Assembly: GCA_902802905.1 (NCBI GenBank)
Contig: CADCNT010000015.1
Location: 1 to 43,023, forward strand
From: an uncultured Erysipelotrichaceae bacterium
Lineage (GTDB): Bacteria > Bacillota_I > Bacilli_A > RFN20 > CAG-826
Direction: 5' to 3'
DNA: 43,023 nucleotides
The notes below the pieces were generated by a model, which was not told where the DNA came from, did not search any database, and saw nothing but the letters and a program-made list of their open reading frames with translations. This document shows positions 18,195 to 39,639 of the stretch, in pieces. Both the position numbers and the translations under genes were made by a program. Position 1 is the stretch's first letter. Every line of letters begins with the position of its first letter.

Positions 18195-18202
18195 TTTTGT
18201 TT

Positions 18203-18208: not shown

Positions 18209-18214
18209 AGTGGC

Positions 18215-23174: not shown

Positions 23175-23195
23175 TTTCAAGCGCGTATATATGCA

Positions 23196-23204
23196 TGCTA
23201 TAAT
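23196..23204 (+). promoter_or_regulatory. Extended -10 promoter of the AAA+/GTPase/Hint operon
   Basis: TGcTATAAT at 23196-23204 is a perfect -10 box with TGn extension; a weak TTTCAA (23175-23180) lies 18 bp upstream. Transcription should start near 23211, giving a leader of under 20 nt that includes GGAG (23215-23218). This is the only convincing promoter I see before the nine genes up to 39639. Confidence 0.7.
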
Positions 23205-23227
23205 TTTAGCAATTGGAGATTTTATAT

Positions 23228-25411
23228 ATGAAAGATGGTTATTCTATTAAGTGGATTAACGATTTAAAAATGTATTCACAAATCGTGTCCTCTTTTATTT
23301 TAGAAGGTAATATCCATGACCTTCATCCAGTCGAAGTTGATGACAAATACTTATATCTTCCTGTGGAGCAAGTAATTGCGAAACTCTTAGGAGATAAGTT
23401 CTCAGTCGTTTATTTTGACCACACTAAAAAGCCAGGCAATCCAATCGAATCTTTAGATGATAAAAAAGAAGAAGATGACGATGAGGATGATCCAAGCGAT
23501 AAGAAAGAAGAATTCTCATTTAACTCCTTTGAATTCGCTAACGAAAAGGATGAAGCGAATATCAAAATGTTTAAACGTTATTACTTAAGAAGCTATGTCG
23601 ATAGTGTTTCTCAACAAACCAAGAACAATCTACAATCTGGACTCACTCTTGATATGTTTAGAGTGCATGACGCAGTTGCAGAATTCGATAAGCTTCATCG
23701 AGAAGAAGAATTTAAAAACGCGAAACCATTCTTATTTGTCTTAAAAGATGTATCAAGATACATGACTAGACCAGGTCAACCTAGTGACGGGGAAAATCCT
23801 TCTTTAATCGTCTTATTTAAGACTATTGAGCTTGTCGATGTTTCTTCTAGACTCGTGTTACTCGTTGATAAAAACAATGACTTACCAAGCTGGTTTGAGG
23901 CCGAAAACTCAAATCCATCCACTAAGAAGTTGTTCTTACCATTCCCTGATAGTGATTTCCGTAAGAAATACTATGGCTATGAAATGGATGATGTTTTAGA
24001 AGCACCAAGTGATCCTGCTAAAAAAGATAAACTCATGGATAAATATGCAGCCTTCACTGATAAATACACAGTAAGAAAACTCGAACAATTAAAAGCGTAT
24101 ATTGAATCTTCCGATAATGAGAGCGACAAAAAACTCCTCTATATTGAAAAAACCATTATTAAATTTGACTTAGGTCAAACTAATGACCCATGGAAATCTC
24201 CAGATTTAGTGGGCAAAGTCAAAGATCTTAAAAATGAAGTGGTCAGTCAAATTAAAGGGCAAGACCATGTTATAGAAAAAATCCAAGCCAACCTTAACGG
24301 AGCGGTCGCGGGTGTCACAACCACTAAACCAAATGATCGAAGACCTAAAGCTGTCTTCTTCTTAGCGGGTCCTACCGGTGTTGGTAAAACTGAGATTACA
24401 AAGATTATAACAAGCACCATATTCTCTAATCCTGACCGTATGATTAGATTTGATATGTCGGAATTTAAAGACGAGCACACAGATGCACGTTTATTTGGTG
24501 CCCCGCCAGGATATGTTGGCTATGAAGCGGGCGGTGAACTCACTAAAGCCATTAAGCAAAACCCATTCTCCGTGGTCTTGTTCGATGAAATCGAAAAGGC
24601 TAACGATAAGATTTGGGATAAGTTCTTACAAATCTTAGGTGATGGTAGATTAACGGATGGCAAAGGTGAAACCGTCTATTTCTCCCAGTCCATCATCGTC
24701 TTTACTTCTAACTTAGGTGTTACTTCTAAGAAAAAACTGGAATTAGATGTTGTTAATCGTTTACTTGCAGACTTCAAAGAAAAAGAAGCCGAATTATCTT
24801 CTAAGATTGATGAAGCTAAAGCCGCTGGTAATAAGGGTGAGTTAGAAAAACAAGTTAGCGAACTCATTAATTTAGAAAAACAAAAAGTGGCCTCTTTAGG
24901 CATTAAATACTCCTATAGTGGAGACAAATTATTCGCTTCTTATTATGACCTAGTGAAAATGCCAGGAAGAGATTTCACATATTCTAAACCAATCAATTAC
25001 TTCAATGACTTCTGTGATGAAGTGATTAAAGATAATGTCAAAAATTACTTTGAAGGTATCGGCAGAAGAGAAGTTCTTGGTCGTATTGGTGAAGATAACA
25101 TCATCATCTTCCACTTTATCAACGAAAAGAACGCTAGAGAGATTTCGCTTCTTGCTATTGATAAATTTAAGAAATACTTGCTTGAAGAACATGATCAGCA
25201 CATCTCTTTAGAGATATCTGAAGAAGCAGTGAAGTTCATCCAAGGCAAAGCAAGTGAGCCAAGCGCCCTTGAATTAGGTGGTAGAGGAATTGTGGCTACT
25301 ACTGAAGAATTATTAAAAGAACCAACCAGTAGATTTATTTTAGATCATGTTGGTCAAGAAGATTTAAGAGCCACAATGACTCTTGAAGATGGGTATTTAG
25401 TTGTTAAATAA
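23228..25411 (+). CDS. ClpB-class AAA+ ATPase with degenerate N-terminal AAA-like domain
   Basis: First gene of the putative conflict system; 727 residues from the ATG at 23228 (GGAG nine bases upstream; a TTG inside that ribosome-binding site is not credible). The active AAA+ domain is of ClpA/ClpB D2 type: Walker A GPTGVGKT (381-388), GAPPGYVGYEAGG pore-loop region, Walker B LFDEIEKA (Asp453, Glu454), sensor 1 FTSN (Asn495), an Arg-finger-like RREVLGRIG and sensor 2 GGRGI. Residues about 1-240 contain an EGNIHDL-type start and LIVLFK/LVLLVDKN strands like an AAA domain but no Walker A, and hold an acidic DDKKEEDDDEDD linker. A coiled-coil insert follows sensor 1. It probably remodels or threads a partner protein of the operon. 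Confidence 0.87.
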   Translation: MKDGYSIKWINDLKMYSQIVSSFILEGNIHDLHPVEVDDKYLYLPVEQVIAKLLGDKFSVVYFDHTKKPGNPIESLDDKKEEDDDEDDPSDKKEEFSFNSFEFANEKDEANIKMFKRYYLRSYVDSVSQQTKNNLQSGLTLDMFRVHDAVAEFDKLHREEEFKNAKPFLFVLKDVSRYMTRPGQPSDGENPSLIVLFKTIELVDVSSRLVLLVDKNNDLPSWFEAENSNPSTKKLFLPFPDSDFRKKYYGYEMDDVLEAPSDPAKKDKLMDKYAAFTDKYTVRKLEQLKAYIESSDNESDKKLLYIEKTIIKFDLGQTNDPWKSPDLVGKVKDLKNEVVSQIKGQDHVIEKIQANLNGAVAGVTTTKPNDRRPKAVFFLAGPTGVGKTEITKIITSTIFSNPDRMIRFDMSEFKDEHTDARLFGAPPGYVGYEAGGELTKAIKQNPFSVVLFDEIEKANDKIWDKFLQILGDGRLTDGKGETVYFSQSIIVFTSNLGVTSKKKLELDVVNRLLADFKEKEAELSSKIDEAKAAGNKGELEKQVSELINLEKQKVASLGIKYSYSGDKLFASYYDLVKMPGRDFTYSKPINYFNDFCDEVIKDNVKNYFEGIGRREVLGRIGEDNIIIFHFINEKNAREISLLAIDKFKKYLLEEHDQHISLEISEEAVKFIQGKASEPSALELGGRGIVATTEELLKEPTSRFILDHVGQEDLRATMTLEDGYLVVK

Positions 25412-25416
25412 AATTT

Positions 25417-25989
25417 ATGATTAGCATCACTGGTGATGAACAAGTATATAACTACGCAAGATTCTTAGAACGTATCCAAGAAGGAGAAGGATCTAAGTTT
25501 CTTTATACGTATTTCGATAAGAAATGTGGGAATACGCTTTACTCTAAAAAGCTTCCATGTGTTTATCGTGGTGATGCTTTTATTCTTACTTTAAGAGATT
25601 TTCCAATGCTAATTAAGTTAGAAGCATTGCTAGACCGTATTGTTCCTATTTTAGATAGATTCTTTGATGTGGTTAGCAAATGTAACTTAAAGATACATCC
25701 TGAAGCCGTTGATATACGAACCGTTGAAGGAGAAGTACAAGGTTTAATAATGCAGTTAAACTCAACTTTAAACCTAACTTCTATTGATGAGGCGATTAAG
25801 GGATTAAATTATCTTTTCCCAGTTGAAGGGAAATCTGTTTTAGAAAATAAGATTGCCCAACTTATGGCGCATTATGAAAAGCATGGCACCAAGATTTATA
25901 TCTCTGGTTTACATCACGCGCTTGATTTGGTGGGAGATGTGGATTTCTCCTCTAGAGCTGGCAAAAAGGTTTTTATGGTGAATAAATAA
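25417..25989 (+). CDS. Hypothetical protein, 190 residues
   Basis: I do not recognise this family. The protein is soluble, with no signal peptide or membrane helix. It begins with a mixed alpha/beta region (about 1-55, including VYRGDAFILTLRDFPMLIKL), continues as amphipathic helices (about 56-150) and ends in a short beta-rich tail (ISGLHHALDLVGDVDF). It lies five bases after the AAA+ gene and overlaps the next gene as TAATG, so it is translated together with both. An adaptor role for the ATPase is possible but is inference. Confidence 0.7.
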   Translation: MISITGDEQVYNYARFLERIQEGEGSKFLYTYFDKKCGNTLYSKKLPCVYRGDAFILTLRDFPMLIKLEALLDRIVPILDRFFDVVSKCNLKIHPEAVDIRTVEGEVQGLIMQLNSTLNLTSIDEAIKGLNYLFPVEGKSVLENKIAQLMAHYEKHGTKIYISGLHHALDLVGDVDFSSRAGKKVFMVNK

Positions 25990-27845
25990 TGGGACAAAAA
26001 GTATCTATTCTCACTAATAAAACTAGCAAGACTTACTATGTAAGACTGGAATTTGAAAGTGCCTTAAAGATGGAACTTATAGATAGAAAAGGTCTATCTG
26101 AAGAAGAAAGAAATCGTCTTTTAGAATACTTCAAATGCACAGAAGAATATGATGAGCTAGTCTTTAACGTAAAACTAGAATGTGCGGAAAGAGACAGAGA
26201 AGGTTGGAGTGATTTAGAAAAATGCATTCGTAAATATAATGAAAACCTTCCAACTCAATCCGATTGGCGGAAATATGATGCCTCCACAGATAGACTTTTG
26301 AAGTGCTCCAGAGAAGAATGTGAAGAACTTAATAGATACTTTGAAAACGACATTTTAAAGATTATTGAAAGCGATATCGAACCAAGTAGACAATCTTCTG
26401 ATTCTTTAAAGAGCATTATCAAAGAAGACATCGCAAAAGAAGAAATCAAAAATAGTGATTTCATCTTATATCGCTGTGAATGCGGCAAATACTCCATTCT
26501 TAAAAAAGTGGCCGCGCCGATATGTAATCGCTGCAAAGCTAAATTAAATGATATTGTTTTACGTGGCTCACTAGAAGAGTGCACAGATGAATTTAATCGC
26601 TTAACTAGCTCCCAAATAAAAGATGAATCAGAAGATGAAGTTTTTATCCTTTATGGCAGAAGATATCATTCATCGATTAGAGAAGATGTGATTCGTCTAC
26701 ATAAAGTAATGTTTGATAACTTCGCTGTTAATGAAACATTTAAAGAAGATGAAAGAACTTTATCAATTACTTTCACTCCTAAATTTAAATTCTTTATTGA
26801 TAAATCTCCATTTAAAAAAGAGATTGAAGGATTTGGATATGATTATCTTACTGATAATCTAGAATCCTCATTCTTGCTATATTTAGCAAAGTTTGAAGAA
26901 CTACTTCCAAGTAAACCAATTGGAGTGCATCCAGTCATTCCTTATAAAGGAAGAAGACTAGAAACTATAAAAGAATATTTAGAAGTCTTTTTAGAAGACC
27001 AAAGTATATATCACTTCTATAAAGAGAATTATTTTTACACGAATTTCTTTAAAGCAGAAAAACGTTACAAGGCTAACGAATATTTCTCTTCACTTTTCTA
27101 TTCTGAATTAAAGAAATTTGCGTTTTATAAAGAGCCTGATTTAGTAGTGCTTCCCGATAACTTACTTAAGCTATTAATTGTTGAAGAAAATAAAGATAAG
27201 CAGTCTCTATATCGAAATTTCATCGCGGATTACTTATCCAACTTCTTCCTCTATCCAGGAAACGAAACAAGTTTCTCAATTACTGATTTCGATGCGATGA
27301 ATGTGACTTCCTTCTCTGATTATGACGCTTTAAGTTATTTTGATTATCTTTTAAGCGGTAAGAAAGTATTTAAATATCGAAGCATCGCAATTGGCTTATC
27401 CTATTTAGAACCGCAAAAATATCAAGAACAAGTCTTTGAAACATTAAGAGATATCTATGTCTATTCTTCTGGTGACAGCCAAAAAGAATATGAAGATTTC
27501 TTAAAAGCTGTATCTTCAGAAGCAATAAAACAAGTTTTAGGAAACGAAGGAAAAGAACTATATCAAACCATCTTGGAAGTTAAAGATAGCGGTGATCCGT
27601 CGATTTTAAACATGTATTTATCGATTTGTCCAAAGATTGATTTAAAGAATATGGAATTTAATCTCAGTGGCAATAGAGGCACTTTAGTGGATATCACCAA
27701 AAGTGTTTCTATGTTTGGCTCAGAAGTTATAAAGAATTTTGTTACATCTAGAGACATAGAGAAGATATTGTCTAAAGCCGATGACCATTATAAAGAATTC
27801 AAAAATGAATCAAAGGAAGAATTTATCAGTTTTTTAAATTTATAA
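25989..27845 (+). CDS. Large hypothetical protein with a small zinc ribbon
   Basis: A 618-residue soluble protein that I cannot assign. Visible are a charged helical N-terminal region (about 1-150), a compact zinc-ribbon-like site Cys163-x-Cys165 ... Cys179-x2-Cys182 (YRCECGKYSILKK then ICNRCKAKL), and a long C-terminal region (about 210-618) rich in aromatic residues and helices without an obvious repeat or nucleotide-binding motif. The GTPase of the same operon also has a zinc ribbon, which may indicate joint assembly. It starts by TAATG overlap. Confidence 0.7.
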   Translation: MGQKVSILTNKTSKTYYVRLEFESALKMELIDRKGLSEEERNRLLEYFKCTEEYDELVFNVKLECAERDREGWSDLEKCIRKYNENLPTQSDWRKYDASTDRLLKCSREECEELNRYFENDILKIIESDIEPSRQSSDSLKSIIKEDIAKEEIKNSDFILYRCECGKYSILKKVAAPICNRCKAKLNDIVLRGSLEECTDEFNRLTSSQIKDESEDEVFILYGRRYHSSIREDVIRLHKVMFDNFAVNETFKEDERTLSITFTPKFKFFIDKSPFKKEIEGFGYDYLTDNLESSFLLYLAKFEELLPSKPIGVHPVIPYKGRRLETIKEYLEVFLEDQSIYHFYKENYFYTNFFKAEKRYKANEYFSSLFYSELKKFAFYKEPDLVVLPDNLLKLLIVEENKDKQSLYRNFIADYLSNFFLYPGNETSFSITDFDAMNVTSFSDYDALSYFDYLLSGKKVFKYRSIAIGLSYLEPQKYQEQVFETLRDIYVYSSGDSQKEYEDFLKAVSSEAIKQVLGNEGKELYQTILEVKDSGDPSILNMYLSICPKIDLKNMEFNLSGNRGTLVDITKSVSMFGSEVIKNFVTSRDIEKILSKADDHYKEFKNESKEEFISFLNL

Positions 27846-27855
27846 GGAGAGAGTT

Positions 27856-29670
27856 ATGAGTAGTGGAGTGGAATTTATCTTAGCCCCAGTATACGGGATT
27901 GTGGCCGGTATCGCTGGTCTTGTTTCTGTGACCGCAAAAGCGATTGGGCTTGTCGCAGTTGCCACCAAAGAAGCAATCCAAAAAGAAATTGAAGAAGCCC
28001 ATCGTAGAAGATATGAAAAATGGATCAAAGAAGAACCAGAATGGGTGGAAAGTAGAAGACAGACTGTTAATGCCGAGATTGATTTAGAATTAACTAGATT
28101 AAGAAAAGCTGAGCAAGAATGTCAAAGAATGATCACTCAAGCTTCTAAAACTTATACTGCTTTAGACCATACTTATAACTTGGACAAAGAAAAAGCTAAA
28201 GCCGAAGAAGAGCTTAAAATAATCCAAGAAGATATCGCTGCGCTTGAAAAACGCAAAGTCGCAGTGAATAAAGAACTAGATGAACATCTAACTAAAGTCA
28301 AAAAGTCTAAATCTTACGATGATATCGTTTCTCGTCCTAACTCTAAATACGAAAAAGGAAGAGTGGGAGACCATACGATTAAAAAGATGTCTGATCGAAT
28401 TAAAGAGTTAGATAAAAGAATAACTGAATTCTGCAAAGTAGTTAATGACTTTGCCGAAAAAGTAAGAAATGCATCACATAGTGATTTCCTAAAACGTTTA
28501 GTGAAGAAGTTAGATTCTTTAGATCCAACAGAGGAAAAAGCTTTAGGAGAAATCAAACTCTTTATTGATGATATTAAACGTGAAATCAGATCTATTGAAA
28601 CTAAGTTATTAGATAACTCTTTATCTGCGGAAGCAAGAAAAGCGGCGAATGAAGAAATGATGATGCTTCAAGGCTTATTAGATTCTTTAGCCCCAATTGA
28701 AGAATTACTTATTAAATATCAAAAACTCGATGAAGAAAGCGAAGCACGCGCGGTCGAACTTTTCAAAGAATGCGTTGAAGATATTAAAGAAATAGGCGAG
28801 ATGCGTTATGTTTCTGAAACCACAAAAGGGGAAATGGAAAGACCATTATCTATTTTAAATAGAATCGCCGAATCTTTAGACAACGAGAATGCAGTTACTA
28901 TTTTGAGCAATATCAAAGAAGAGATTAAACAAATCAAAGAAGAAGCCAAAGCGCTTGAAGATAGATATATCAGATACACCAAAGCCCATGATAAATATGT
29001 TGAAATTCACTCTAAATATAGAAAAGAAGACATTAAACGCATTATGGGTGATAGATACGCTGATCCGGAATCATATCATTTTAGAGAAGATGAAAAGATT
29101 GAAGGCGTTATTAGATTATTAGAAATCGCTAACGAGTCACTTGAAGAAGGTTTAAAGGAAGAAGTTAAACGCGGCACAATCCGTTACTTTGAAGAAACCT
29201 TAAAAGATAAAATCGTTTCTAAAAAGAAAGTGGGCGAAACTTATGAAATCGTCTACACCCGTAAAGAAGAAAGAAACGTTCTATATGTTATTAAAATCTT
29301 TGAAGATGGCACAGTAGAAGTTGGACCAAGAGGGGTTAAACTCCATAACGGTCAAGTCTTATCTAGCCGTAAAGATTTAGAAAAATCTGTTTCAACATGC
29401 GCGTGGAAGAAGTCACTTGAAGAAGACTTAGAAGCCTGCAATATGAGCGACGCTATTGTCGTGGATGATGAACGCGCGACAGTGTATGAAGAAAGTGACT
29501 TCTATCAATTAGATAACGAAGAAGAAACAAAACGTTTCTTAAGAAAAAACGGATACAGCGAAGAAGAAATTAATCGCCTTCTTTATGGTGATTCTGAAGT
29601 GTCGGAATCGATAGAAGAAAATAGAGACGAAGAAGTTGCCCAAGCAATAGAAATTGATCCACATAAATAA
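27856..29670 (+). CDS. Coiled-coil protein with hydrophobic N-terminus
   Basis: A 604-residue protein of unknown family with a good ribosome-binding site (AAGGAGAG). Residues about 6-40 are a Gly/Ala/Val-rich hydrophobic stretch (ILAPVYGIVAGIAGLVSVT and on) that could insert in or lie on the membrane. Residues about 50-420 are very rich in Glu, Lys and Leu and should form long coiled coils, including a segment of paired helices around 100-150. Residues about 430-540 switch to a beta-rich domain (ETYEIVYTRKEERNVLYVIKIFEDGTVEVGPRG). The C-terminus is acidic. It may be a scaffold that brings the AAA+ and GTPase proteins to the membrane; this is inference. Confidence 0.7.
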   Translation: MSSGVEFILAPVYGIVAGIAGLVSVTAKAIGLVAVATKEAIQKEIEEAHRRRYEKWIKEEPEWVESRRQTVNAEIDLELTRLRKAEQECQRMITQASKTYTALDHTYNLDKEKAKAEEELKIIQEDIAALEKRKVAVNKELDEHLTKVKKSKSYDDIVSRPNSKYEKGRVGDHTIKKMSDRIKELDKRITEFCKVVNDFAEKVRNASHSDFLKRLVKKLDSLDPTEEKALGEIKLFIDDIKREIRSIETKLLDNSLSAEARKAANEEMMMLQGLLDSLAPIEELLIKYQKLDEESEARAVELFKECVEDIKEIGEMRYVSETTKGEMERPLSILNRIAESLDNENAVTILSNIKEEIKQIKEEAKALEDRYIRYTKAHDKYVEIHSKYRKEDIKRIMGDRYADPESYHFREDEKIEGVIRLLEIANESLEEGLKEEVKRGTIRYFEETLKDKIVSKKKVGETYEIVYTRKEERNVLYVIKIFEDGTVEVGPRGVKLHNGQVLSSRKDLEKSVSTCAWKKSLEEDLEACNMSDAIVVDDERATVYEESDFYQLDNEEETKRFLRKNGYSEEEINRLLYGDSEVSESIEENRDEEVAQAIEIDPHK

Positions 29671-29675
29671 ACTAT

Positions 29676-30275
29676 ATGCAAATTGGTAATATCTTTTCAG
29701 GAATATCATCTTTAGGAATAGGCTCTAGGGTGGTCTTATGGACTCTAGGATGTTTAAAACATTGCCCAGGATGTATCTCTCCTGAATATCAATTCTTCGA
29801 CAAAGAAAAAGAGAGAAGTGTAGAAGACATTATTGAAGAGCTAAAAGAATATAAGTTTGATGGAGTAACCATTTCTGGAGGAGAACCATTCCTCTGGAGT
29901 AAAGAGCTTAAAGAATTAGTAAAACTAATCAAAAAGAATTTCACCGATGATATCCTCATCTATAGTGGCTACACCATTGAAGAGCTATATGCCAAAAATG
30001 ATAAAGATATCAACTATATTCTTAAGAATATTGCAGTTCTAGTAGATGGGCCATTTGTCCAGTCTCAGTTAGATAACGTGCTATTAAGAGGTAGTAAGAA
30101 TCAAAGAATACTAGTGATGAATCCGAAATACTTAAAACCGTATCAAGAGTATTTAAAACAAGAAAAAGTTGTAAACCTAGTTAAACAAGGTCGAGCCATG
30201 TATGTCATCGGAGTGCCAATAGAGGGCATGCAAGATGCCATGATGTCGTTAATGGAGGAAAGTGATTATGAGTGA
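29676..30275 (+). CDS. Radical SAM protein, NrdG/pyruvate-formate-lyase-activase-like
   Basis: A 199-residue radical S-adenosylmethionine protein of the small 4Fe-4S activase type. The cluster motif Cys26-x3-Cys30-x2-Cys33 (GCLKHCPGC) binds the iron-sulfur cluster, and SGGEPF with GGE at 68-70 contacts SAM. The size and lack of extra domains match NrdG and similar glycyl-radical activases. No glycyl-radical enzyme (RVxGY-like motif) is encoded in the operon, so it may modify one of the operon proteins instead. It begins five bases after the previous gene and overlaps the GTPase gene by 8 nt, so it is an integral part of the system. Confidence 0.88.
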   Translation: MQIGNIFSGISSLGIGSRVVLWTLGCLKHCPGCISPEYQFFDKEKERSVEDIIEELKEYKFDGVTISGGEPFLWSKELKELVKLIKKNFTDDILIYSGYTIEELYAKNDKDINYILKNIAVLVDGPFVQSQLDNVLLRGSKNQRILVMNPKYLKPYQEYLKQEKVVNLVKQGRAMYVIGVPIEGMQDAMMSLMEESDYE

Positions 30276-32298
30276 GTACCATTTTGAGTATCAATGTACG
30301 TCCAAAGCTGATGCTTCTAATAAGCAAGCATTAAGATTTTCACTCTATCAAGATTATGATGGGAAAAACCCTGACTCTTTGATGAAGGTAATGATTTATA
30401 TTCCTAAAGAGTTACAAGGTGATGATTTTGTTGAAGCCCGTCTATATTATCAAGAAAACGGAGTGGATTTCCCTGATCCTACTGCTGAAGAGTGGCAGTC
30501 CCGTGTCAAAGTCAAATCCGAAAAAGACATTAAAAAAGATAACGCAGTTTTTATTGTTCCTTCCTATAACTGCTCAGGAACTGGTGTTTTAGAGCTGATT
30601 AGAAAAGGCAATAAGAAAGTGGCGTTAGAAGATACTTATTTATTCACCATTAATTTCTCTAAAAAACAACCAATTTACTACGAAATAAAAGAAAAGAAGA
30701 ACGGCAAATACATTCAAGTAAGAGCGTGTTATCCACGTATTAGAAAAGACATCGACCTACATGTTTGCTTTACTCAAAAACGTAAACCATTAAAAGTTGG
30801 TGAATACACTGATATCACCCATCAAGTTAAAGATAAGGATGGAGATCCAAAAATCTTAACTTTAGGTGTCAAAGAAGATGATATCAATTATTACGCCGAA
30901 ACTATTAAAGTGGAAAAGACCATTGGCCCTGATTATCGTTTAACATTTATCGATAAAGATAACTTTGAATTCTACATCCTTGTTGATGAATCTGAAATCA
31001 CAGTAGAAGAATTAGGTAACAAAGAAAACTACTATAAAGAAGAAAAGCGACTCCCATATAAACGCATCGCTACCTGTCCATATTGTGGCGCTAACCTTGT
31101 TTTACCTACCAAAGATGATGGTTTGGCCCATACGTGTGACGGTAGAGACTTCATTGATGGTTCTTTTGCTAAGCTCAACAAAAGAAGAAAGAAAGACAAA
31201 TCTGGAAAAGATATTACATATGAAAAAACCACAGTGGTCTGTCAAAATTGCTACTATAGTGACACTTTAAAAGGACCACGCGGAGTAGTGGACGGGGTAA
31301 GAATATTACCTGATGATATCTTTAAAAAACCAGTCATGCATACAATGTTTATTGGCGCAAGAAATAGTGGAAAAACTATGTTTTTAGCCTCTTTAATAAA
31401 CTTACAAGATGATAATAAATCAGAACCAAATATCCTCTCTGCTATTACTAGATGTTTTACTCGTAATAAAAATAAAATCGCCGAAGAATTTGAACCAGAA
31501 TCATTTATGTTAGCAGGCAATAAGATTGTCCCTGCTGTTAAAACACAAAAGAATCTTAACCAGTCTAGATACGCTTTGGAGGTCAATAAGAAAGCAGAAA
31601 ACCACACTAAATTAGATAGTAGTGATGCGATTTCCTGGAACCCTCAATCATATGCTCTAGATAAATTAGGCTATGTCTTCTTCTATGATGTACCTGGTGA
31701 AATCTTTGATAGAGAAAATAACAACATGAAACTCCACTCATTTGATATGGTAGATTCAATTATTGCAGTTGTTGATGGTTATCCAACTCTTGAAGATAAT
31801 AATGTCTTAGACGGTTTAGAAAGATGCTTAGATAAGATTCTTGACACCGCAAAAGACAAAGACCAAATTAAAGAGATTCCTCTCGCGGTAGTCTTTACGA
31901 AGATGGACCGTCTATTAAAAGACCACACAGATAAGACACCGCTTCCAGAGTGTTTTGATGATAACTGTCATATCACTAGAGAAGATATCTTCTCTATGCT
32001 TCCTAAAAACGGCAAATATGAAGGTAGCATGTTGCAAAGACATATCGATAACTCATCTTATGAATTAGTCCATTATCTCAAGGAGATGGAACCAGATTCA
32101 TTTGATAGCGCTTCTAAAGGTGAAAACTTTACCAGCAAGATTAAAAGCTTCAAGAGATGGAAATTCTTCTCTGTCTCTGCTTTAGGCAGCAATGAAGTTT
32201 TAGATAATGACAAAAATGTTTTATGCAAACGCCGTACATTAAGGGTGGAACTCCCACTCATTTGGCTGATGTACCAAAAACATTTAATCAAGAAATAG
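30268..32298 (+). CDS. Zinc-ribbon GTPase resembling DO-GTPase conflict-system GTPases
   Basis: A 676-residue protein from the ATG at 30268 (GGAGG upstream; a GTG six bases earlier is less likely). Residues 1-260 are beta-rich and unassigned. A zinc ribbon follows: Cys270-x2-Cys273 and Cys325-x2-Cys328 flank a Lys-rich insert. The P-loop NTPase has Walker A GARNSGKT (363-370), a switch-like Asp474-Val-Pro-Gly (YVFFYDVPGE) and the guanine-recognition motif TKMD (544-547), which together indicate a TRAFAC-type GTPase. The ribbon-then-GTPase order and the next gene's resemblance to GAP1 point to the DO-GTPase group known from bacterial NTP-dependent conflict systems. The second, partner GTPase of those systems is not seen here. 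Confidence 0.8.
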   Translation: MSEYHFEYQCTSKADASNKQALRFSLYQDYDGKNPDSLMKVMIYIPKELQGDDFVEARLYYQENGVDFPDPTAEEWQSRVKVKSEKDIKKDNAVFIVPSYNCSGTGVLELIRKGNKKVALEDTYLFTINFSKKQPIYYEIKEKKNGKYIQVRACYPRIRKDIDLHVCFTQKRKPLKVGEYTDITHQVKDKDGDPKILTLGVKEDDINYYAETIKVEKTIGPDYRLTFIDKDNFEFYILVDESEITVEELGNKENYYKEEKRLPYKRIATCPYCGANLVLPTKDDGLAHTCDGRDFIDGSFAKLNKRRKKDKSGKDITYEKTTVVCQNCYYSDTLKGPRGVVDGVRILPDDIFKKPVMHTMFIGARNSGKTMFLASLINLQDDNKSEPNILSAITRCFTRNKNKIAEEFEPESFMLAGNKIVPAVKTQKNLNQSRYALEVNKKAENHTKLDSSDAISWNPQSYALDKLGYVFFYDVPGEIFDRENNNMKLHSFDMVDSIIAVVDGYPTLEDNNVLDGLERCLDKILDTAKDKDQIKEIPLAVVFTKMDRLLKDHTDKTPLPECFDDNCHITREDIFSMLPKNGKYEGSMLQRHIDNSSYELVHYLKEMEPDSFDSASKGENFTSKIKSFKRWKFFSVSALGSNEVLDNDKNVLCKRRTLRVELPLIWLMYQKHLIKK

Positions 32299-32308
32299 AG
32301 GTGAGATT

Positions 32309-35026
32309 ATGGCGAACTTAAAAGAATGCATTTACTTCTATATTTATAGCGAAGAGTATAAGGGTGACGGTATTTATAATTGCACCAAAGGTTATACTCA
32401 ATATGACTTTAAAAACATCATTGAATTAGGCCTAAATAATGTCAAAAACTCAATGGTAAAGGCTTATTTTGCCTCGAAAGAGCAAATTGTTTATAAGTAT
32501 TTTCCTGGTGAAGGAGCTATAGTGGGCGAATATCTTGATTCACGTATTTCTAAACTCAAAGAAGCCAAGAAAGCTCAAGGCGAAGATTACCGTGGAGACG
32601 AAAATGTAAAACGCGGTATCGAAGATATTGATTTAGAACATTACTACGCTGTTGGTGTGCTTAATCCTTCTAGTACCTATTTAAAAACTAAGCCTGCAAT
32701 TAATTTCGATAGTGAAGGTGTTGCCACTTTTGATTTAACAAGTGACACTCATAAACTTGATGTCGTTGATCAAGATTTAGTATTTAAAAACGATGTTGAT
32801 ATCAAAAAGATTGCTGAACATCGTAATGAATTCATTGAACTTTTAAGAGCGTTCCTTTACTGCAGAAGCAAGGGTAGTTCTTTATATATTGAAGTTAGTG
32901 AAAACCAATATGACTTAGGTAAATTCTATTTAGAAAGTATTTTAAAGATGTTCCCTATTAGCTTTGCTAATAAGGTATCATTCTCTACTTTCTTTACTGG
33001 CGTTAACGAAGATATTTCTTTATTCTTCACTCCTCAAGAAGATGAAGTGATGAAATTTAATGATAATTATTACGATAATGTCATCGTGAAGATTGATGGC
33101 TACGCGCCTGCATGTGACGGAGAATATTTATCTAAGCATGAATTTGAAAATTTATTAATACTTGCTGACGCTAAGAGAGTTGATGAAGCAAGCTTCAAAC
33201 AACTGTTAGAAATCTTTACTAAAAGAATTGCGTATATCAATGACATTGATAGCGGAGACAAACTCTATAACTTACTTTTAGCGTTCGCACATTTATATGA
33301 TAATACGATTGATTTTACCGATGTTCAGGGTGAAGTCTTAAAGGAAATTGAATTTGTTGATAAAAACAAAGTATCCTTAACCAGCACTTTAAAGATCGAA
33401 CAAGACTTAGTGTTTAAGCGCTTACTTAAATTGCTTAATGACCTACTCCCGCTTGCTGATATGGTTTCCGAATATCTCTTTGACCAATTATTAGAGATAA
33501 GATTTGCTTATAAGATTAAAGAGTTAGACACCATTCTTTATGATTTGATTCTTTGTCGTAAAGTTAAAGACGGCAAATTTAATATTGAACTATTAAATGC
33601 TATATTAAAGCTGAAGTTATCTGACGCTGCTAGTGATTATTTAGAATCTTACTTTAAAGCAACTTTAATTGCAGATTTCATTGATAACTATGCTAATTAC
33701 TATGCATTTATCAAAAAGTTCTTAGAAGACTCTGGCTCTAGCGATACTTTGCTTAATCTTTTAGCTAGTGAGATAGCGATTAATGTCACTAGATCCATCA
33801 AAGAAAAACAGTGCTTAGACTTATTAGAAATCTTAGTTAGATGTCATGATAAAGGCTTTAATGTTTGCTTTGATAAGAGTGTAGAAGAAGCTAAAGACAC
33901 TTATATTGGTAATGTGATTAAGTTTTACTTAAAATTCATTCAACATTGCGATGACGCTGATTTAAGAAATAGCTATTTTGAATATGTCTGCACTAAACTC
34001 AGTGACCCAGCATTCTTTGGCGTTTTCTATAATGAATTATTTAACGCTAAAGTAGTCGAACAAAGGCAAATCTATTTCGCAAAAGCCATGGATATGTCTG
34101 CGCCTATTAATGACGAAGATGCTTTAGCGAAATCTATAAGAAGAATTAACGAATTAGTGGAGGCTGTTGAAGGTGGCAAGATAAAAGAAAGTTTATTCAA
34201 AGACTATCATGACCTTCTTATTAGCAATCCTGCTTATGAAAAAGAAAAGAAAATTTCTCTTTCTCTAATTGAGAAATTACATCTCGATTTATTTAAAGAT
34301 GAATCTCTTAAGCTTTATGAGACATTAAAAGAAGCATTTAACTACTTCACTGATCTAAAAGATCAAAAATCGTATCAAGAAGCTTTAGAAAAAAGATATC
34401 AAGAATATATCGTTGCCCAAGAGAGCCAAAAGCAAAAAAGCGAACTCTTGTTGCCTCGAATTGATTTCATTGTTGATAACTACATGACTCTAGGTGATGT
34501 GAGAATGATAGAAATCGCAGTTCGTCTTGTGGGGCAAGGAAAAGTCGATGAGACTTTAACTGATGTAGAAAAACCTTATCAAAATAATCCTATCTTCATG
34601 AAGAGGATGAGAAAAGTTGTTACTGATTTCTTACTTTATGGTGAAGATCCTGACGCGAAAGTCAAGTTTGCAGAAGATGTTAGAAAAGTCTATGAGGATG
34701 ATAAACGCCTTACTGCGAGAATGTCCTTCAAAGGAATTAGCAAGATGGTTGTTGGCTATATTGGCTTAATTGCTATCTTCTTATTAGCGGATGTTTTAGC
34801 TTCCATACTCATCTATTGGTTTGTCCTAAAGAGTGGCTATGTCTTCCTTTTAGGCGCAGTCACACTTTTAAACATTTTAGCGATGAGCATTCTTTATTTT
34901 AAAAACATGAGAATGAGAATGTTTGCTAGTCCGTTTATTAGAACTCTTTGGCAGTCACTTTTAATTACCGGCATTATGTATGCGACACTTTATGGTGCTC
35001 TCATGCTGTTTATTTATTTGGTGTAG
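32309..35026 (+). CDS. GTPase-associated protein 1 (GAP1)-like protein with C-terminal membrane helices
   Basis: A 905-residue protein directly after the GTPase gene (ribosome-binding site GAGGTGAG). The N-terminal region (about 1-290) starts with FYIYSEEYKGDGIYNCTKGYTQYDF and contains FPISFANKVSFSTFF, which resembles the 'LPxxxRRxLSFsTy' segment of GAP1 proteins. The middle (about 300-780) is helical, like a solenoid. Residues about 812-905 hold three to four membrane helices, so the protein is anchored by its C-terminus with the bulk probably in the cytosol. GAP1 proteins accompany DO-GTPases in conflict systems; assignment is by weak motif similarity plus gene order and needs a profile search. 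Confidence 0.6.
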   Translation: MANLKECIYFYIYSEEYKGDGIYNCTKGYTQYDFKNIIELGLNNVKNSMVKAYFASKEQIVYKYFPGEGAIVGEYLDSRISKLKEAKKAQGEDYRGDENVKRGIEDIDLEHYYAVGVLNPSSTYLKTKPAINFDSEGVATFDLTSDTHKLDVVDQDLVFKNDVDIKKIAEHRNEFIELLRAFLYCRSKGSSLYIEVSENQYDLGKFYLESILKMFPISFANKVSFSTFFTGVNEDISLFFTPQEDEVMKFNDNYYDNVIVKIDGYAPACDGEYLSKHEFENLLILADAKRVDEASFKQLLEIFTKRIAYINDIDSGDKLYNLLLAFAHLYDNTIDFTDVQGEVLKEIEFVDKNKVSLTSTLKIEQDLVFKRLLKLLNDLLPLADMVSEYLFDQLLEIRFAYKIKELDTILYDLILCRKVKDGKFNIELLNAILKLKLSDAASDYLESYFKATLIADFIDNYANYYAFIKKFLEDSGSSDTLLNLLASEIAINVTRSIKEKQCLDLLEILVRCHDKGFNVCFDKSVEEAKDTYIGNVIKFYLKFIQHCDDADLRNSYFEYVCTKLSDPAFFGVFYNELFNAKVVEQRQIYFAKAMDMSAPINDEDALAKSIRRINELVEAVEGGKIKESLFKDYHDLLISNPAYEKEKKISLSLIEKLHLDLFKDESLKLYETLKEAFNYFTDLKDQKSYQEALEKRYQEYIVAQESQKQKSELLLPRIDFIVDNYMTLGDVRMIEIAVRLVGQGKVDETLTDVEKPYQNNPIFMKRMRKVVTDFLLYGEDPDAKVKFAEDVRKVYEDDKRLTARMSFKGISKMVVGYIGLIAIFLLADVLASILIYWFVLKSGYVFLLGAVTLLNILAMSILYFKNMRMRMFASPFIRTLWQSLLITGIMYATLYGALMLFIYLV

Positions 35027-35040
35027 AGGAGGGCAAAAAG

Positions 35041-38000
35041 ATGAAACGAGCAAGAAGTATTTTTGCACAAAATTCATATAAACTCTTTGGCCTTTTCTGC
35101 GCGATTGCAGTTATTTTAGGAGCGGTCCCTGTCGCGTTAACTGCGTATTTGTTTGGTTTTGCCCAAAACAAAGTGATGCCAAAATTCTTAAATTATCATA
35201 TTGATGACACCTTATCATTAGATAAAGTCTCTGAGTCTTTAAAAGGCCATAGTGTGCGTTGGGTTTCTAATCTTGACTTCACTGTTAAAACATATGCGAA
35301 GAAAGATGGATTCTATGTTGAAAGTAATGATGTGATTTCCTATTCAAAAACTACAAGATTATTTACTTTTAATGCGGTTGGTGAAGGCTATATTTCGTTT
35401 ATAAATACCTTCGACCAATCCTTAACTGTTAAGCTTGATGTTTCATCAATTTTCTATAGTGAGACTCTTGGTAGATTATTAACTGAAAATCGTCAAGACA
35501 TCACTAGTGATGGGATTATCACTAAAGATGAACTATCAAGTATTTCTAAAGTAACCCTGTTACAGCAATATAGTAGTTATGACTTCTCAGATTTTAAATA
35601 TATGCAGAATGTCATAAAATTCTATGTTCCTAGTTTCTATGATGACGCATTATTAAGCGGCTCTAATATTGATAAAATCAATCAAGACGCTAGTTTCTAT
35701 GTTCCGGAAAACTTATATTACGAATATCAAGACTCTAGCTTTCTTAATTCATTCAAGCAAAAAGACAAACTCTTTGTTAACTTTAATCAACAAGAGGAAA
35801 GAAAATATTCGGTTATTATTCATCCAAACGGAGGTAGCACTCCTGAGTTTGACCAAGATTTATATTTTTCAACTACAACTGGTAAGTTAAGCGATGAAGA
35901 TTTATCTTTCATGAACTCGGTTGCAATTCGTGGTAAACACATTCTTTATTGGTATTACTACGAAAACGGGCAAGAAACACAGTTTGATTTAAATCGTGTT
36001 TTAGATGATGATATCCATATTTACGCTAAATGGGATATTAATAGATATCGCATTAGATATCACTTCAATTCATATGTCGATGTCGTTAATGACTACTATG
36101 ATATTGAATATGAATATGACAAGGAAGGTAAATATTTATCTACAGCTCAACTATTAGAGAGGGCCCCCAACGCTCACATTAAGGAAGAAGAACCTGAAGA
36201 AGATAAATTTATCTTCCTGGGCTGGGCTTATAGTCCAAACTCCAAAACAGTTGATGAAACCATCAACGATGACGCTACTGTGTTTGAATATACTGATGTC
36301 CATAATGATTTAATCGATTTATACGCTATTTGGGCATTTAAAAAAGTCCATATCACATATAAATATGGCGCGGATAAAGCTAGCTCAAAAGAAACCACCT
36401 TATATTACGGTCAATCTTTATCTGTTGGCTACGTTGGTGGTGATAAGATTGATGAATATTGGTATGGTCATACCTTTAAAGGCTGGGGACTTGATCAAGA
36501 AACAACCCCTCAATTTGCCTTTAACGACTCCCTTTCATTGCCAAGATTATCAACTGAATCTAACTATATCACCATTTATGGTGTTTACTTTGAACGTGTT
36601 TTATTCCAAGTGGATTATTATGATGCAGAAGACCACTTTGTGGTAACTGACACTAACCATGGAAATAAATACTATTCTGATGAAAAAGTGAATTTCTTAG
36701 ATGCGATTGATTACACCGATAGCAGCTTTATAGTAGACGGTAAACATTTTATCGGTTGGAAAGATGAAGGTAGTTCAGTTTATGTCTATCGTGATTTTGA
36801 AAATCTTGTTGGCTATTATACTTTACCTGACCTTTATCAAATCGTTTATATCGATAGAGACGATCAAGGTAACTACACCTTAGAAAAAGGCATTGATTTT
36901 GGTGGGACTGAATATAAACTTACTGCTCAATACATCGACAATAGATTTGACATCAAGTTTAACACTGAAAACGGAACAGCCTTCAATGAAATTCAAGAAG
37001 CAATTCCAGGTGGAAACTATGACGTTAGTGGCACAACTACAAAACATGGCTTTAGCAATCCTGACTATACTTATGTATCCGTTAATACCTTTGATGAACT
37101 TAGATACGACTTCAAAAATGAAGGAGTCACACCTGCTAGATCTAAAGCAATGTATGATCAAATAAAAAAGCAAAATGGCTATGATGATAACACCTTCCCA
37201 ACTGGAACCGGTATTTATGATCGTGCTTCTATCAGTTTTGAATCTGTGTTTACCCCTAACCATCACACAATTACACTTAATCCTAATGGTGGTTCCTCTA
37301 GCAAAGATGAAGTAGAAGTCACATATGAAGGTTCCTATGAATTCCCTAAACCAGAAAGATATGGATATACATTTGCTGGATGGTATAACGGGAATGAATT
37401 CTATGAAACTAGTGGAACTTGGCTTGTCGACAGCGATTTAACTTTAACCGCGCATTGGACACCTATTAGCTATAAGATTACTTATAATGCTAACGGTGGC
37501 AGTAATCCTAACACTAAGACAACATATACCATCGAAGATGAATATACATTCTTGGATGCTGCTTTTGCTGGTTATAGCTTTACTGGTTGGTATGACCAAA
37601 ATGGAGTAAAGATAACAAAGATTGTTAAAGGCACAACTGGTAATATCACATTAAACGCTAATTGGAATGCCAAAACTTATAAAGTTATTTATAAAAATGG
37701 TAATATTGAACTTAACTACACTCCAAATACAGCAACATTTAATGAGAAATTTACAGTTACAACTTCTCTTCCAGCTGCCCCTGAAAAGAAGAAATTTAAC
37801 CAATGGGTTGCTTATGAACCAAATGGCAGCAAACTTGATTTAACTGTCGGCTCTGGCGGTAGCTTTACATATAGATATCCATACAATCTTACTTTAAAGA
37901 TCGAATGGGTTGATGACGGCTGTGTTACTGGTGACACTTTGCTAACTATGGAGGACCACAGTCAAAAGGCCGTTAAAGATATTGAACGTGGTGATATGGT

Positions 38001-38631
38001 ACAAACATTGAACCATGAAACTGGATTGATTGATTATAAACCTGTGTTCTTAATTGAAAAAGTTGAGAATACAGTATATCCACAATTCACTGTTAACTTA
38101 GCTAACGGTAATAGTGTGAAGTTCTTAAGCCATCACGATATCTTTATTACTGACACACTTACTTATCAAGAGATTGATTCTGATAACTATTTAGACTTTG
38201 TTGGTAGATATACATTAACTAATGTTAATGATGAACTTGTTAGATCAAGAATCGTTAGTGTATTTAAAGAAGAAGTGGTCACTGATGCATACACCATCTG
38301 TGTAGCGGAGACATTTAATGTCTTCACTAACGGAGTGGTTACACTAACTCCAAATGAATTATGGAGACCATTATTCTCAATTGATGAAAATTATCAATAT
38401 AACAAGGCTGAGTTAGAAAACGATATTGCTACATATGGTTTATTCACCTATGAAGAATTAAGAGCGATTGTTGTTAATTATCTTGGTGAAGATGTTTTTG
38501 ATGAGGAAATTCTCCAATACATGTTCTATTCCACAAACGCCAAATACTTCAAGATTGGTATGGGCAAAGGTATTTATACCTTCGAGGATTTAATGAACTA
38601 CATGGTGAATGATACCTCTAACTACATGTAA
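35041..38631 (+). CDS. Large membrane-anchored InlB-repeat protein with C-terminal Hint domain
   Basis: A 1196-residue protein; ATG 35041 has GAGGAGGGC upstream, and an earlier in-frame start inside the previous gene would add 31 implausible residues. One membrane helix at about 12-38 follows a basic N-terminus, so the rest is probably outside. From about 250 to 950 there are at least six Listeria-Bacteroides (InlB B-type, Flg_new) repeats with a G-W core: Trp395, Trp482, Trp573, Trp781, Trp850 and Trp922. At 961 a Hint (hedgehog/intein) domain starts with Cys961 in GCVTGDTLL, has the His pair 1031-1032 (LSHHDIF) and ends near VFTNGV (about 1100). The usual Asn plus Cys/Ser/Thr of splicing inteins is absent, so cleavage rather than splicing is expected. 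A helical tail of about 95 residues follows. Confidence 0.85.
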   Translation: MKRARSIFAQNSYKLFGLFCAIAVILGAVPVALTAYLFGFAQNKVMPKFLNYHIDDTLSLDKVSESLKGHSVRWVSNLDFTVKTYAKKDGFYVESNDVISYSKTTRLFTFNAVGEGYISFINTFDQSLTVKLDVSSIFYSETLGRLLTENRQDITSDGIITKDELSSISKVTLLQQYSSYDFSDFKYMQNVIKFYVPSFYDDALLSGSNIDKINQDASFYVPENLYYEYQDSSFLNSFKQKDKLFVNFNQQEERKYSVIIHPNGGSTPEFDQDLYFSTTTGKLSDEDLSFMNSVAIRGKHILYWYYYENGQETQFDLNRVLDDDIHIYAKWDINRYRIRYHFNSYVDVVNDYYDIEYEYDKEGKYLSTAQLLERAPNAHIKEEEPEEDKFIFLGWAYSPNSKTVDETINDDATVFEYTDVHNDLIDLYAIWAFKKVHITYKYGADKASSKETTLYYGQSLSVGYVGGDKIDEYWYGHTFKGWGLDQETTPQFAFNDSLSLPRLSTESNYITIYGVYFERVLFQVDYYDAEDHFVVTDTNHGNKYYSDEKVNFLDAIDYTDSSFIVDGKHFIGWKDEGSSVYVYRDFENLVGYYTLPDLYQIVYIDRDDQGNYTLEKGIDFGGTEYKLTAQYIDNRFDIKFNTENGTAFNEIQEAIPGGNYDVSGTTTKHGFSNPDYTYVSVNTFDELRYDFKNEGVTPARSKAMYDQIKKQNGYDDNTFPTGTGIYDRASISFESVFTPNHHTITLNPNGGSSSKDEVEVTYEGSYEFPKPERYGYTFAGWYNGNEFYETSGTWLVDSDLTLTAHWTPISYKITYNANGGSNPNTKTTYTIEDEYTFLDAAFAGYSFTGWYDQNGVKITKIVKGTTGNITLNANWNAKTYKVIYKNGNIELNYTPNTATFNEKFTVTTSLPAAPEKKKFNQWVAYEPNGSKLDLTVGSGGSFTYRYPYNLTLKIEWVDDGCVTGDTLLTMEDHSQKAVKDIERGDMVQTLNHETGLIDYKPVFLIEKVENTVYPQFTVNLANGNSVKFLSHHDIFITDTLTYQEIDSDNYLDFVGRYTLTNVNDELVRSRIVSVFKEEVVTDAYTICVAETFNVFTNGVVTLTPNELWRPLFSIDENYQYNKAELENDIATYGLFTYEELRAIVVNYLGEDVFDEEILQYMFYSTNAKYFKIGMGKGIYTFEDLMNYMVNDTSNYM

Positions 38632-38640
38632 GGAGTGTTT

Positions 38641-39639
38641 ATGGCAGTTAAGCTTATCAAAAAATACGATTATTATGCTTCTTTACTAAACAGCTCCTTT
38701 AGAGCGTACTATGAAAAGGCAATTGATGCCTTAGCAAAAGGCAATAACCATATCCGCGGAAGAGTGGAGGCTGGTGATGATTTTGAAGCGCAGTACAAAC
38801 TCCTTTATCTTGCCATTGATATGGATAATCCAGAAATCTTCTTCTATGACAAAGAAGTGCAAAGGGCCACGGATGGCAACGAACTCATTTTGGACTATAA
38901 GTATGTCTATGATGAAAAAGACATCAAAGAGATGGATCGTGAACTCAATGAAGAAGTTGACCGTATTGTCGCCATTATCAATAAAATCGATGACATCTAT
39001 GATAAGTTATATCGATTAAATCGATATCTCACCATTAGATGTCGTGAATATATGTCTTGGGATCATGTCGCTAGTAACGCTTATGGAGCCTTAATTTCTA
39101 AAAAGAGCAGATGTGAAGGTATTTGTAAAGCCGCCAAGATGATTTTAGACCGCCTTGGTATTAAAAATTTCATCGCTGTTGGAGACGCTACTAATAATGG
39201 CACCAAACAAGCGCATTCATGGAACATGGTTAAAGTAAACGATCAATGGTATCACTTTGATTTCATGTGGGATCTTGGTTTAGCTAGAGAAGGCAAATAT
39301 CCAATCCCGATTTATACGTTCCTTGATGATGCCACAATTTATATTGACCATCGCCCATCTTATAAGTATCCATGTGCTTGTGATACCTCACATTTATATT
39401 GGAATGTACACAATGTTCAAATCAAATCTGTCTTTGATTTAGGAAAAGTGGAAATTGTTCCATTCAAGAGCAATTATTTTGCTCTAGCAATGTTCCCTGA
39501 AGCTTTAACTCCTTATGAAGCAGACTATGAACTTGCTAAATGGGGTATGGATAATTTCAATCCTGGTGGAATTTGTAATTACTTTACCTCATCATATGTA
39601 GCACCATTAAAAATTGGAATTTTCTATTTCGAAAATTAG
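38641..39639 (+). CDS. Transglutaminase-like cysteine enzyme, cytoplasmic
   Basis: A 332-residue protein of the transglutaminase/cysteine peptidase fold. ATG 38641 has AGGAG six bases upstream; a GTG six bases earlier is less suitable. The triad is visible: Cys158 (SRCEGICKAAKMIL; Cys162 is an alternative), His192 (QAHSWNMVKV) and Asp207 (WYHFDFMWD). These domains hydrolyse or crosslink amide bonds. The N-terminal 130 residues are helical and charged. No signal peptide or membrane segment is present, so it acts in the cytosol unless exported by another route. It is the last tightly linked gene of the system, nine bases after the Hint protein, and may process or crosslink an operon partner. 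Confidence 0.83.
   Translation: MAVKLIKKYDYYASLLNSSFRAYYEKAIDALAKGNNHIRGRVEAGDDFEAQYKLLYLAIDMDNPEIFFYDKEVQRATDGNELILDYKYVYDEKDIKEMDRELNEEVDRIVAIINKIDDIYDKLYRLNRYLTIRCREYMSWDHVASNAYGALISKKSRCEGICKAAKMILDRLGIKNFIAVGDATNNGTKQAHSWNMVKVNDQWYHFDFMWDLGLAREGKYPIPIYTFLDDATIYIDHRPSYKYPCACDTSHLYWNVHNVQIKSVFDLGKVEIVPFKSNYFALAMFPEALTPYEADYELAKWGMDNFNPGGICNYFTSSYVAPLKIGIFYFEN

What the first reader, a model, noticed from the sequence alone, without database searches (positions are those of the whole stretch)
23196..39639. Nine-gene operon combining AAA+, GTPase, GAP1-like, radical SAM, Hint and transglutaminase proteins
Seen: nine same-strand genes with gaps or overlaps of -8 to +14 bases after a terminator and one extended -10 promoter. 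They encode a ClpB-class ATPase, two unknowns, a coiled-coil protein with hydrophobic N-terminus, a radical SAM activase-like protein, a zinc-ribbon GTPase, a GAP1-like membrane protein, a Hint-tailed InlB-repeat protein and a transglutaminase-like enzyme. Known: DO-GTPase and GAP1 proteins occur together in bacterial NTP-dependent conflict systems. Inferred: an NTP-controlled, membrane-linked system with a surface effector that self-cleaves, perhaps defence, interbacterial conflict or surface remodelling. I know no description of this exact set.
Basis: partly seen in the sequence, partly recalled or inferred. Interest (0 to 1): 0.88.

Follow-up and report, generated by a model that had tools for sequence, protein, structure and literature searches.

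The report
Mobile AAA+/GTPase/GAP1 operon with Hedgehog-like surface protein
Nine adjacent bacterial genes form a conserved, horizontally moving unit, a new variant of the predicted but experimentally untested double-GTPase/GAP1 conflict systems, which here includes a surface protein ending in a Hedgehog-type autoprocessing domain.

Summary
The nine-gene operon is real and is a unit. All nine genes recur in the same order in five other genomes spanning Bacilli and Clostridia, and near-complete in three more. The block is absent from a same-genus genome where its flanks are neighbours, and it shows cross-class transfer. Kaur et al. 2020 describe GAP1-N2 systems with tubulin, Hsp70 or kinase themes. 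This gene set (ClpB-like AAA+, NrdG-like radical SAM, transglutaminase-like enzyme, InlB-repeat/Hint surface protein, three lineage-specific proteins) is not among them. A sister subtype without Hint exists. The Hint domain models well and is closest to Hedgehog (Z 19.9). Cys1 and the block-B His are invariant, but the TxxH Thr and the intein C-terminal His-Asn are not, so self-cleavage is unproven. Most likely reading: an envelope-sensing, GTPase/GAP1-gated conflict or defence system with AAA+ remodelling and enzymatic effectors. Class membership is well supported; the biological role is inferred and untested. New variant of a known kind.

The parts
23151..23168 (+). intrinsic-terminator-like hairpin of the upstream aminotransferase gene
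   Evidence: consensus match only
23197..23205 (+). extended -10 promoter-like TGCTATAAT; a near-identical TATGTATGCTATAAT precedes the flippase gene at the empty site in G002
   Evidence: sequence; consensus match only
23228..25411 (+). ClpB/ClpA-class AAA+ ATPase, one D2-like module after a ~330-aa N-terminal extension (Walker A 381, Walker B 449)
   Evidence: Pfam AAA_2 1.4e-41, NCBIfam ClpB 1.3e-65 but far under its cut-off, 177 invariant positions in 9 relatives
25417..25989 (+). P2, 190 aa, family of unknown fold, 9 members
   Evidence: no library match; alignment
25989..27845 (+). P3, 618 aa, zinc ribbon plus about six beta-hairpin/helix repeats
   Evidence: alignment and invariant C163 C165 C179 C182; low-confidence model; repeats
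27856..29670 (+). CC4, 604 aa coiled-coil protein with conserved PRGVxLxNG C-terminal motif; marker of the operon
29676..30275 (+). NrdG-like radical SAM protein (CLKHCPGC, GGEP)
   Evidence: Pfam Fer4_12 4.7e-32; TIGR02491 110 bits, below cut-off 126; motifs invariant
30268..32298 (+). divergent DO-GTPase2 with ~270-aa N-terminal domain and one zinc ribbon; G1 365, DVPGE 476, TKMD 546 (numbered from the GTG at 30262)
   Evidence: PF19993 hits all 6 members scanned, best 1.7e-7; invariants
32309..35026 (+). GAP1-N2-type protein (N and M domains) with C-terminal TM helices
   Evidence: hhalign to 13 PF20013 proteins 88-95%; Pfam GAP1-M weak hits in two relatives; TM
35038..37920 (+). membrane-anchored exodomain of the surface protein: TM 16-34, InlB-type repeats
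   Evidence: Flg_new 3e-18; TM; fast-diverging, swapped between relatives
37921..38361 (+). Hint domain, Hedgehog-like; Cys1 = residue 962, His = residue 1033 of the surface protein
   Evidence: Pfam Hint 2.2e-6; model pLDDT 89; Hedgehog 1at0 Z 19.9, rmsd 1.6 A
38362..38631 (+). conserved helical tail after Hint (~85 aa, five helices)
38641..39639 (+). transglutaminase-like thiol enzyme, triad C158, H192, D of HFD
   Evidence: Transglut_core 3.1e-7 over cut-off; triad conserved; homologue inside an Hsp70-type GAP1-N2 operon

Best explanation
This is a horizontally transferred, nine-gene system of the DO-GTPase2/GAP1-N2 class. Shown by sequence: a cytosolic GTPase switch, a membrane GAP1-type partner, a single-pass surface protein with fast-evolving InlB-type repeats, a ClpB-class AAA+ ATPase, a radical SAM enzyme and a transglutaminase-like thiol enzyme are inherited as one cassette. 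Inferred: the surface repeats sense an envelope-borne threat or contact (the role proposed for the FNIII component in the described systems). The signal passes through the Hint/tail part and GAP1 to the GTPase, which gates the AAA+ remodeller (in the place of Hsp70/GrpE in sister systems). The remodeller frees or activates the transglutaminase-like enzyme as effector, with the radical SAM protein installing a modification on an operon or target protein. Outcome: an anti-invader or contact-dependent response at the envelope.
For: Operon order conserved across classes. Three-gene core GTPase-GAP1-surface protein also occurs alone (G043, G102). Sister subtype with the same cassette. DO-GTPase2 and GAP1-N2 homology with negative controls. 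The transglutaminase-like family is shared with a bona fide Hsp70/DO-GTPase2/GAP1-N2 operon. Empty site and different insertion sites. Cross-class transfer: G051 (Bacilli) is 73% identical to L022 (titled Clostridiales) against 35-41% to the other Bacilli copies. Repeat region of the surface protein replaced (21-36% against 51-75% for the other shared genes). Conflict-type neighbours in relatives: TIR-LRR, trypsin, TIR-STAND. The proposed role of such systems: PMC7159879.
Against: No experiment on any member of this class was found in the held library. No PADLOC system match. Not seen in phage or plasmid collections. The GAP1-N2 Pfam model itself gives no hit in the window genome. The sensor, signal direction and effector assignments rest on analogy. 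TIR/trypsin genes are neighbours in relatives only and may be separate units.
Confidence: 0.5

Rival explanations
1. An envelope-building machine rather than a conflict system: GTPase, GAP1-like protein and AAA+ ATPase assemble or turn over a surface adhesin (the InlB-repeat protein), with Hint, radical SAM and transglutaminase-like enzyme as its maturation enzymes.
For: Every complete copy carries a large InlB-repeat surface protein next to or near the GAP1-like gene; InlB repeats and TM segments; no toxin domain in the operon.
Against: Patchy presence (6 of 279 genomes of the order), horizontal transfer and swapped repeat region fit conflict better; the transglutaminase-like and radical SAM proteins show no TM or signal segment and so are not on the side of the exodomain.
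Confidence: 0.3
2. A Hog-like transferase: the Hint domain forms a thioester at Cys962 and hands the exodomain to a lipid, glycan or amine recognised by the helical tail, as Hedgehog does with cholesterol; the rest of the operon controls this.
For: Hint + helical tail without C-extein chemistry is the Hog layout; Hedgehog is the best structural match; Cys1 and His invariant, tail conserved. Hedgehog Hog description: PMC7906309.
Against: The Thr of TxxH is replaced by a hydrophobic residue in nearly all members and the position matching Hedgehog D303 is not conserved; the sister subtype shows no Hint.
Confidence: 0.12
3. A polymorphic-toxin type secreted effector with Hint releasing a C-terminal toxin.
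For: Hint domains are used for release in such systems (general knowledge; not tested here).
Against: The part after Hint is a conserved helical domain in all 10 sequences, not a variable toxin, and no immunity gene follows.
Confidence: 0.04
4. Chance neighbours with no common function.
For: None beyond the diversity of domains.
Against: Conserved order across genomes; CC4 found only where the operon is.
Confidence: 0.01

Closest known systems
GAP1-N2-type DO-GTPase systems (Kaur et al. 2020, eLife 9:e52696, PMC7159879)
   Same: DO-GTPase2 homologue with zinc ribbon and DxPGE motif directly upstream of a GAP1-N2-type protein with C-terminal TM helices; a fast-evolving beta-repeat component; a chaperone-type ATPase; variable enzymes
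   Different: No FNIII, tubulin, Hsp70/GrpE or kinase; instead ClpB-like AAA+, NrdG-like radical SAM, InlB-repeat/Hint surface protein, P2, P3 and CC4, none listed in the paper's GAP1-N2 themes. GTPase and GAP1 fall below Pfam cut-offs
Hsp70-type GAP1-N2 operons in Clostridia (loci L047, L048 here)
   Same: DO-GTPase2, GAP1-N2, a zinc-ribbon/beta-repeat protein; L048 shares the transglutaminase-like family
   Different: Hsp70/GrpE and two or more GTPases, no ClpB-like, radical SAM or Hint protein seen
Hedgehog Hog domain / inteins / BIL domains
   Same: Hint fold, Cys1 and block-B His; Hedgehog-like layout with a helical tail
   Different: No TxxH Thr, no C-terminal His-Asn, no sequence evidence for the tail, exodomain is InlB-repeat
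NrdG / glycyl-radical activases
   Same: CxxxCxxC, GGEP, Fer4_12
   Different: Below the NrdG cut-off; no glycyl-radical motif in the operon

Membership tests
DO-GTPase2 (PF19993) | homology to the Double-GTPase 2 domain | tested here: met
   All six members scanned hit PF19993, best 1.7e-7; window protein 5.8e-4, 20 bits, under the curated cut-off of 27
DO-GTPase2 (PF19993) | conserved Glu in the Walker B region (DxPGE) and N-terminal zinc ribbon | tested here: met
   DVPGE with invariant D, PG and E; four invariant Cys (272, 275, 292, 327) in 11 sequences; one ribbon, not the two usual for GAP1-N2 systems
GAP1-N2 | GAP1-N2 plus GAP1-M domains, encoded downstream of the GTPase | tested here: met
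   hhalign 88-95%, E 2.8e-6 to 1.6e-8 against 13 PF20013 proteins, controls at most 1%; weak Pfam GAP1-M in two relatives; below single-sequence detection in the window
GAP1-N2 | GAP1-C domain | not tested
   The profile alignment stops after the M domain
GAP1-N2 system | FNIII-repeat component | tested here: not met
   No fn3 match in any of the nine proteins; InlB-type repeats instead
GAP1-N2 system | one of the described themes (tubulin, Hsp70/GrpE, kinase/PP2C) | tested here: not met
   No such domain in the nine proteins
GAP1-N2 system | role in biological conflict | not testable with these tools
   Needs phage, plasmid or competition assays
Hint / Hedgehog Hog | Hint fold | tested here: met
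   Model pLDDT 89; 1at0 Z 19.9, rmsd 1.6 over 138 residues
Hint / Hedgehog Hog | Cys1 and block-B His | tested here: met
   Invariant in 10 sequences; C13/H84 of the model fall on C258/H329 by the ranges
Hint / Hedgehog Hog | block-B Thr (T326 of fly Hedgehog) | tested here: not met
   Leu in the window, mostly Ile/Val/Leu in relatives
Hint / Hedgehog Hog | autocatalytic cleavage at Cys1 | not testable with these tools
   Needs a purified construct
Intein / BIL-A | C-terminal His-Asn | tested here: not met
   Absent in all 10 sequences
Transglutaminase-like superfamily (PF01841) | Transglut_core domain with Cys-His-Asp triad | tested here: met
   31.1 bits over cut-off 23; triad in 7 of 7
ClpB (TIGR03346) | full two-AAA chaperone above the equivalog cut-off | tested here: not met
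   222 bits against 1232; one recognised AAA+ module
NrdG (TIGR02491) | score above the equivalog cut-off | tested here: not met
   110 bits against 126

The most novel reading that the evidence does not exclude
A bacterial Hog-like module: a Hint domain plus helical recognition tail that, under GTPase/GAP1/AAA+ control, cleaves or transfers a sensor exodomain to an envelope nucleophile as the triggering step of a conflict response.
Probability: 0.1. Interest if true: 0.88.

Novelty: new variant of a known kind. Interest (0 to 1): 0.64.

Why it matters
The DO-GTPase/GAP1 systems were predicted from genomes in 2020 and I found no experimental study of one in the held library. This finding adds a compact, bounded, mobile cassette with clear catalytic residues in its enzymes and switches, two conserved subtypes, a minimal three-gene core and an empty site. 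That makes the question of what GAP1 systems do testable by moving one cassette into a laboratory host. It also shows a Hedgehog-like Hint domain wired to a GTPase switch in bacteria.

Tried and rejected
Single-protein scan of genome contigs found nothing; the profile scan did. GAP1-N2 Pfam search of the window's phylum found nothing, so reference GAP1-N2 proteins were taken from the class of L022. The structure of P3 was poor (pLDDT 57) and was not searched. P2, P3 and CC4 were compared with proteins of Hsp70-type operons: no homology beyond a zinc ribbon. Glycyl-radical motifs for the radical SAM protein: none. Plasmid and phage collections: no match. The GAP-position protein of the sister subtype is not detectably GAP1 (5%). 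The EAD11 match in one CC4 relative (0.0045) is taken as a coiled-coil chance match. The tail after Hint found no fold match of its own, but it was never searched alone. Chance adjacency and the toxin-release reading were rejected.
Full report
OBSERVATION. The window is contig 15 of a 1.54-Mb genome. Nine + strand genes lie at 23228-39639 with gaps of -8 to +11 bases, behind a terminator-like hairpin and an extended -10. Domain scans give a ClpB-class AAA+ ATPase, two unknowns (P2, P3), a coiled-coil protein (CC4), an NrdG-like radical SAM protein, a zinc-ribbon GTPase, a protein with C-terminal TM helices, an InlB-repeat protein with a Hint domain, and a transglutaminase-like enzyme.

IT IS A UNIT. 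The GTPase was sought in 279 genomes of the order: six have it. In G051, G001 and G097 all nine genes recur in the same order on the same strand. A profile scan of genome contigs added five loci titled Clostridiales, Christensenellaceae, Borkfalkia or Clostridia. L024 and L027 show all nine; in L024 the radical SAM gene was masked by a longer antisense ORF in the gene map but is recovered. L021 shows the last eight plus a ClpL-profile ORF, L022 lacks only the transglutaminase-like gene, and L023 is cut by the contig end. CC4 was found only in genomes that have the operon: 4 of 279 in the order; in 291 genomes around L022 only L022's own genome, apart from one marginal coiled-coil match. G043 and G102 hold only GTPase, GAP1-like and surface protein, so these three are the core and the five-gene 5' module plus the transglutaminase-like gene are an add-on.

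IT MOVES. In G002 of the same genus the aminotransferase and the flippase that flank the operon are neighbours about 0.2 kb apart, so the site is empty. In G001 the operon lies about 170 kb from its flippase gene. The G051 GTPase is 73% identical to that of L022 but 35-41% to those of the window, G001, G043, G097 and G102, while the two same-genus copies are 34% identical. The surface-protein repeat region (residues about 200-700) is 21-36% identical between G051 and L022 while the other genes they share are 51-75% identical and the first 200 residues 52-58%, so this region was replaced. I read this as transfer between classes and diversification of the exposed part. Record titles, not a tree of the hosts, are the basis for 'Clostridia'.

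WHAT THE SWITCH IS. All six GTPases scanned match Pfam DO-GTPase2, best 1.7e-7, though the window protein scores below the curated cut-off. They keep G1, DxPGE and TKxD motifs and four zinc-ribbon cysteines. The next protein gives no Pfam hit alone. An alignment of its 11 members aligned to 13 true GAP1-N2 proteins (found by PF20013) with 88-95% probability across the N and M domains, while the eight other operon families reached at most 1%. Pfam's GAP1-M shows weakly in two relatives at the right place. So this is a divergent GAP1-N2 system by homology. The GAP1-C domain was not tested.

WHAT IS DIFFERENT. Kaur et al. (PMC7159879) list GAP1-N2 systems with FNIII proteins and tubulin, Hsp70/GrpE or kinase themes. 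The operon has none of these. Radical SAM and transglutaminase are each mentioned once in that paper, in other systems. Two of the fetched GAP1-N2 loci, L047 and L048, are Hsp70-type operons; L048 holds a homologue of our transglutaminase-like enzyme beside a GTPase, an independent bridge between the two themes. The paper's supplementary tables could not be read, so an unlabelled example there cannot be excluded.

A SISTER SUBTYPE. A class-wide profile search found four more loci, three of them with the order TGL-ClpL-P2'-P3'-CC4-radical SAM-GTPase-GAP'-X-surface protein (G133, G023, G057; G132 is a contig fragment from P3' on). AAA+ (100%), transglutaminase-like (98.5%), CC4 (95%) and the surface repeats (99.4%) are homologous to ours by hhalign; the GAP' link is not significant (5%, though it falls on the GAP1-M region). 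The surface protein there has InlB-type repeats but no Hint match. So the cassette is older and wider than the window's form, and Hint is an option of one subtype.

THE HINT DOMAIN. Residues 950-1197 modelled at pLDDT 89. Residues 13-157 of the model align to the Hedgehog autoprocessing domain, Z 19.9 and rmsd 1.6 A, the top of the list, with inteins and BIL domains close behind; differences of under 1 in Z are ties. Cys1 and the block-B His are invariant in ten sequences and fall on Hedgehog C258 and H329 by the aligned ranges. The Thr of TxxH is hydrophobic in nearly all, and the C-terminal His-Asn of inteins is absent. An 85-residue conserved helical tail follows, which recalls the Hint-plus-SRR layout of Hedgehog Hog domains (PMC7906309), without sequence evidence. 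Splicing is excluded on sequence; Cys-dependent cleavage or transfer remains possible but unproven.

MECHANISM. Shown: constituents, motifs, membrane segments, co-inheritance, mobility. Inferred: the surface repeats sense, GAP1 and GTPase switch, the AAA+ ATPase remodels (in place of Hsp70), the transglutaminase-like enzyme acts, the radical SAM protein modifies an unknown partner (no glycyl-radical motif in the operon). Support for a conflict role is circumstantial: patchiness, transfer, repeat swapping, and TIR-LRR, trypsin or TIR-STAND neighbours in G043 and G133. An envelope-assembly role is the main rival.

VERDICT. Real, conserved, mobile; a new variant of the predicted DO-GTPase2/GAP1-N2 systems. 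Its function is untested.

Noticed in passing
window 15256-16609: HTH-nucleotidyltransferase (MntA-like) gene followed by a HepT-like ribonuclease fused to a GNAT acetyltransferase domain, an unusual fusion in a HEPN/MNT-type pair.
   Followed up: no
window 18179-19531: N-terminal HTH_3 domain fused to a UDP-glucose/GDP-mannose dehydrogenase.
   Followed up: no
window 19521-20315 (-): Microbial-type PARG (poly-ADP-ribose glycohydrolase) beside the operon's upstream genes.
   Followed up: no
window 9784-11759 and 16628-18079: Three glycosyl hydrolase family 16 proteins with an ABC sugar transporter set: probably a beta-glucan utilisation locus.
   Followed up: no
L011 3100-14723: Downstream of the three-gene core in G043: FtsK-type ATPase, two TIR plus leucine-rich-repeat proteins (one with InlB repeats), AAA ATPase and a zinc-ribbon trypsin. 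A 217-base gap separates them from the core.
   Followed up: partly
L024 20635-21957; L102 860-2539: Conjugative coupling-protein (TrwB/TraG) type ATPases beside the operon in two unrelated loci; role unknown.
   Followed up: partly
L101 2269-6090: TIR-STAND-TPR-aminoglycoside-phosphotransferase-like protein about 26 bases downstream of the surface gene of the sister subtype in G133.
   Followed up: no
L047 15433-16200 (-): A TNT (tuberculosis necrotizing toxin type) domain protein next to an Hsp70-type DO-GTPase2/GAP1-N2 operon.
   Followed up: no
window 25989-27845: P3 has about six repeats of a beta hairpin plus helix (pattern YYxGxxYxLsxxdFxxLhxxLY) that no library names.
   Followed up: partly
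window 23187-23205 and L064 about 2637-2660: The promoter-like stretch before the operon resembles the one before the flippase at the empty site in G002; the operon may have entered just downstream of the flippase's old promoter.
   Followed up: no
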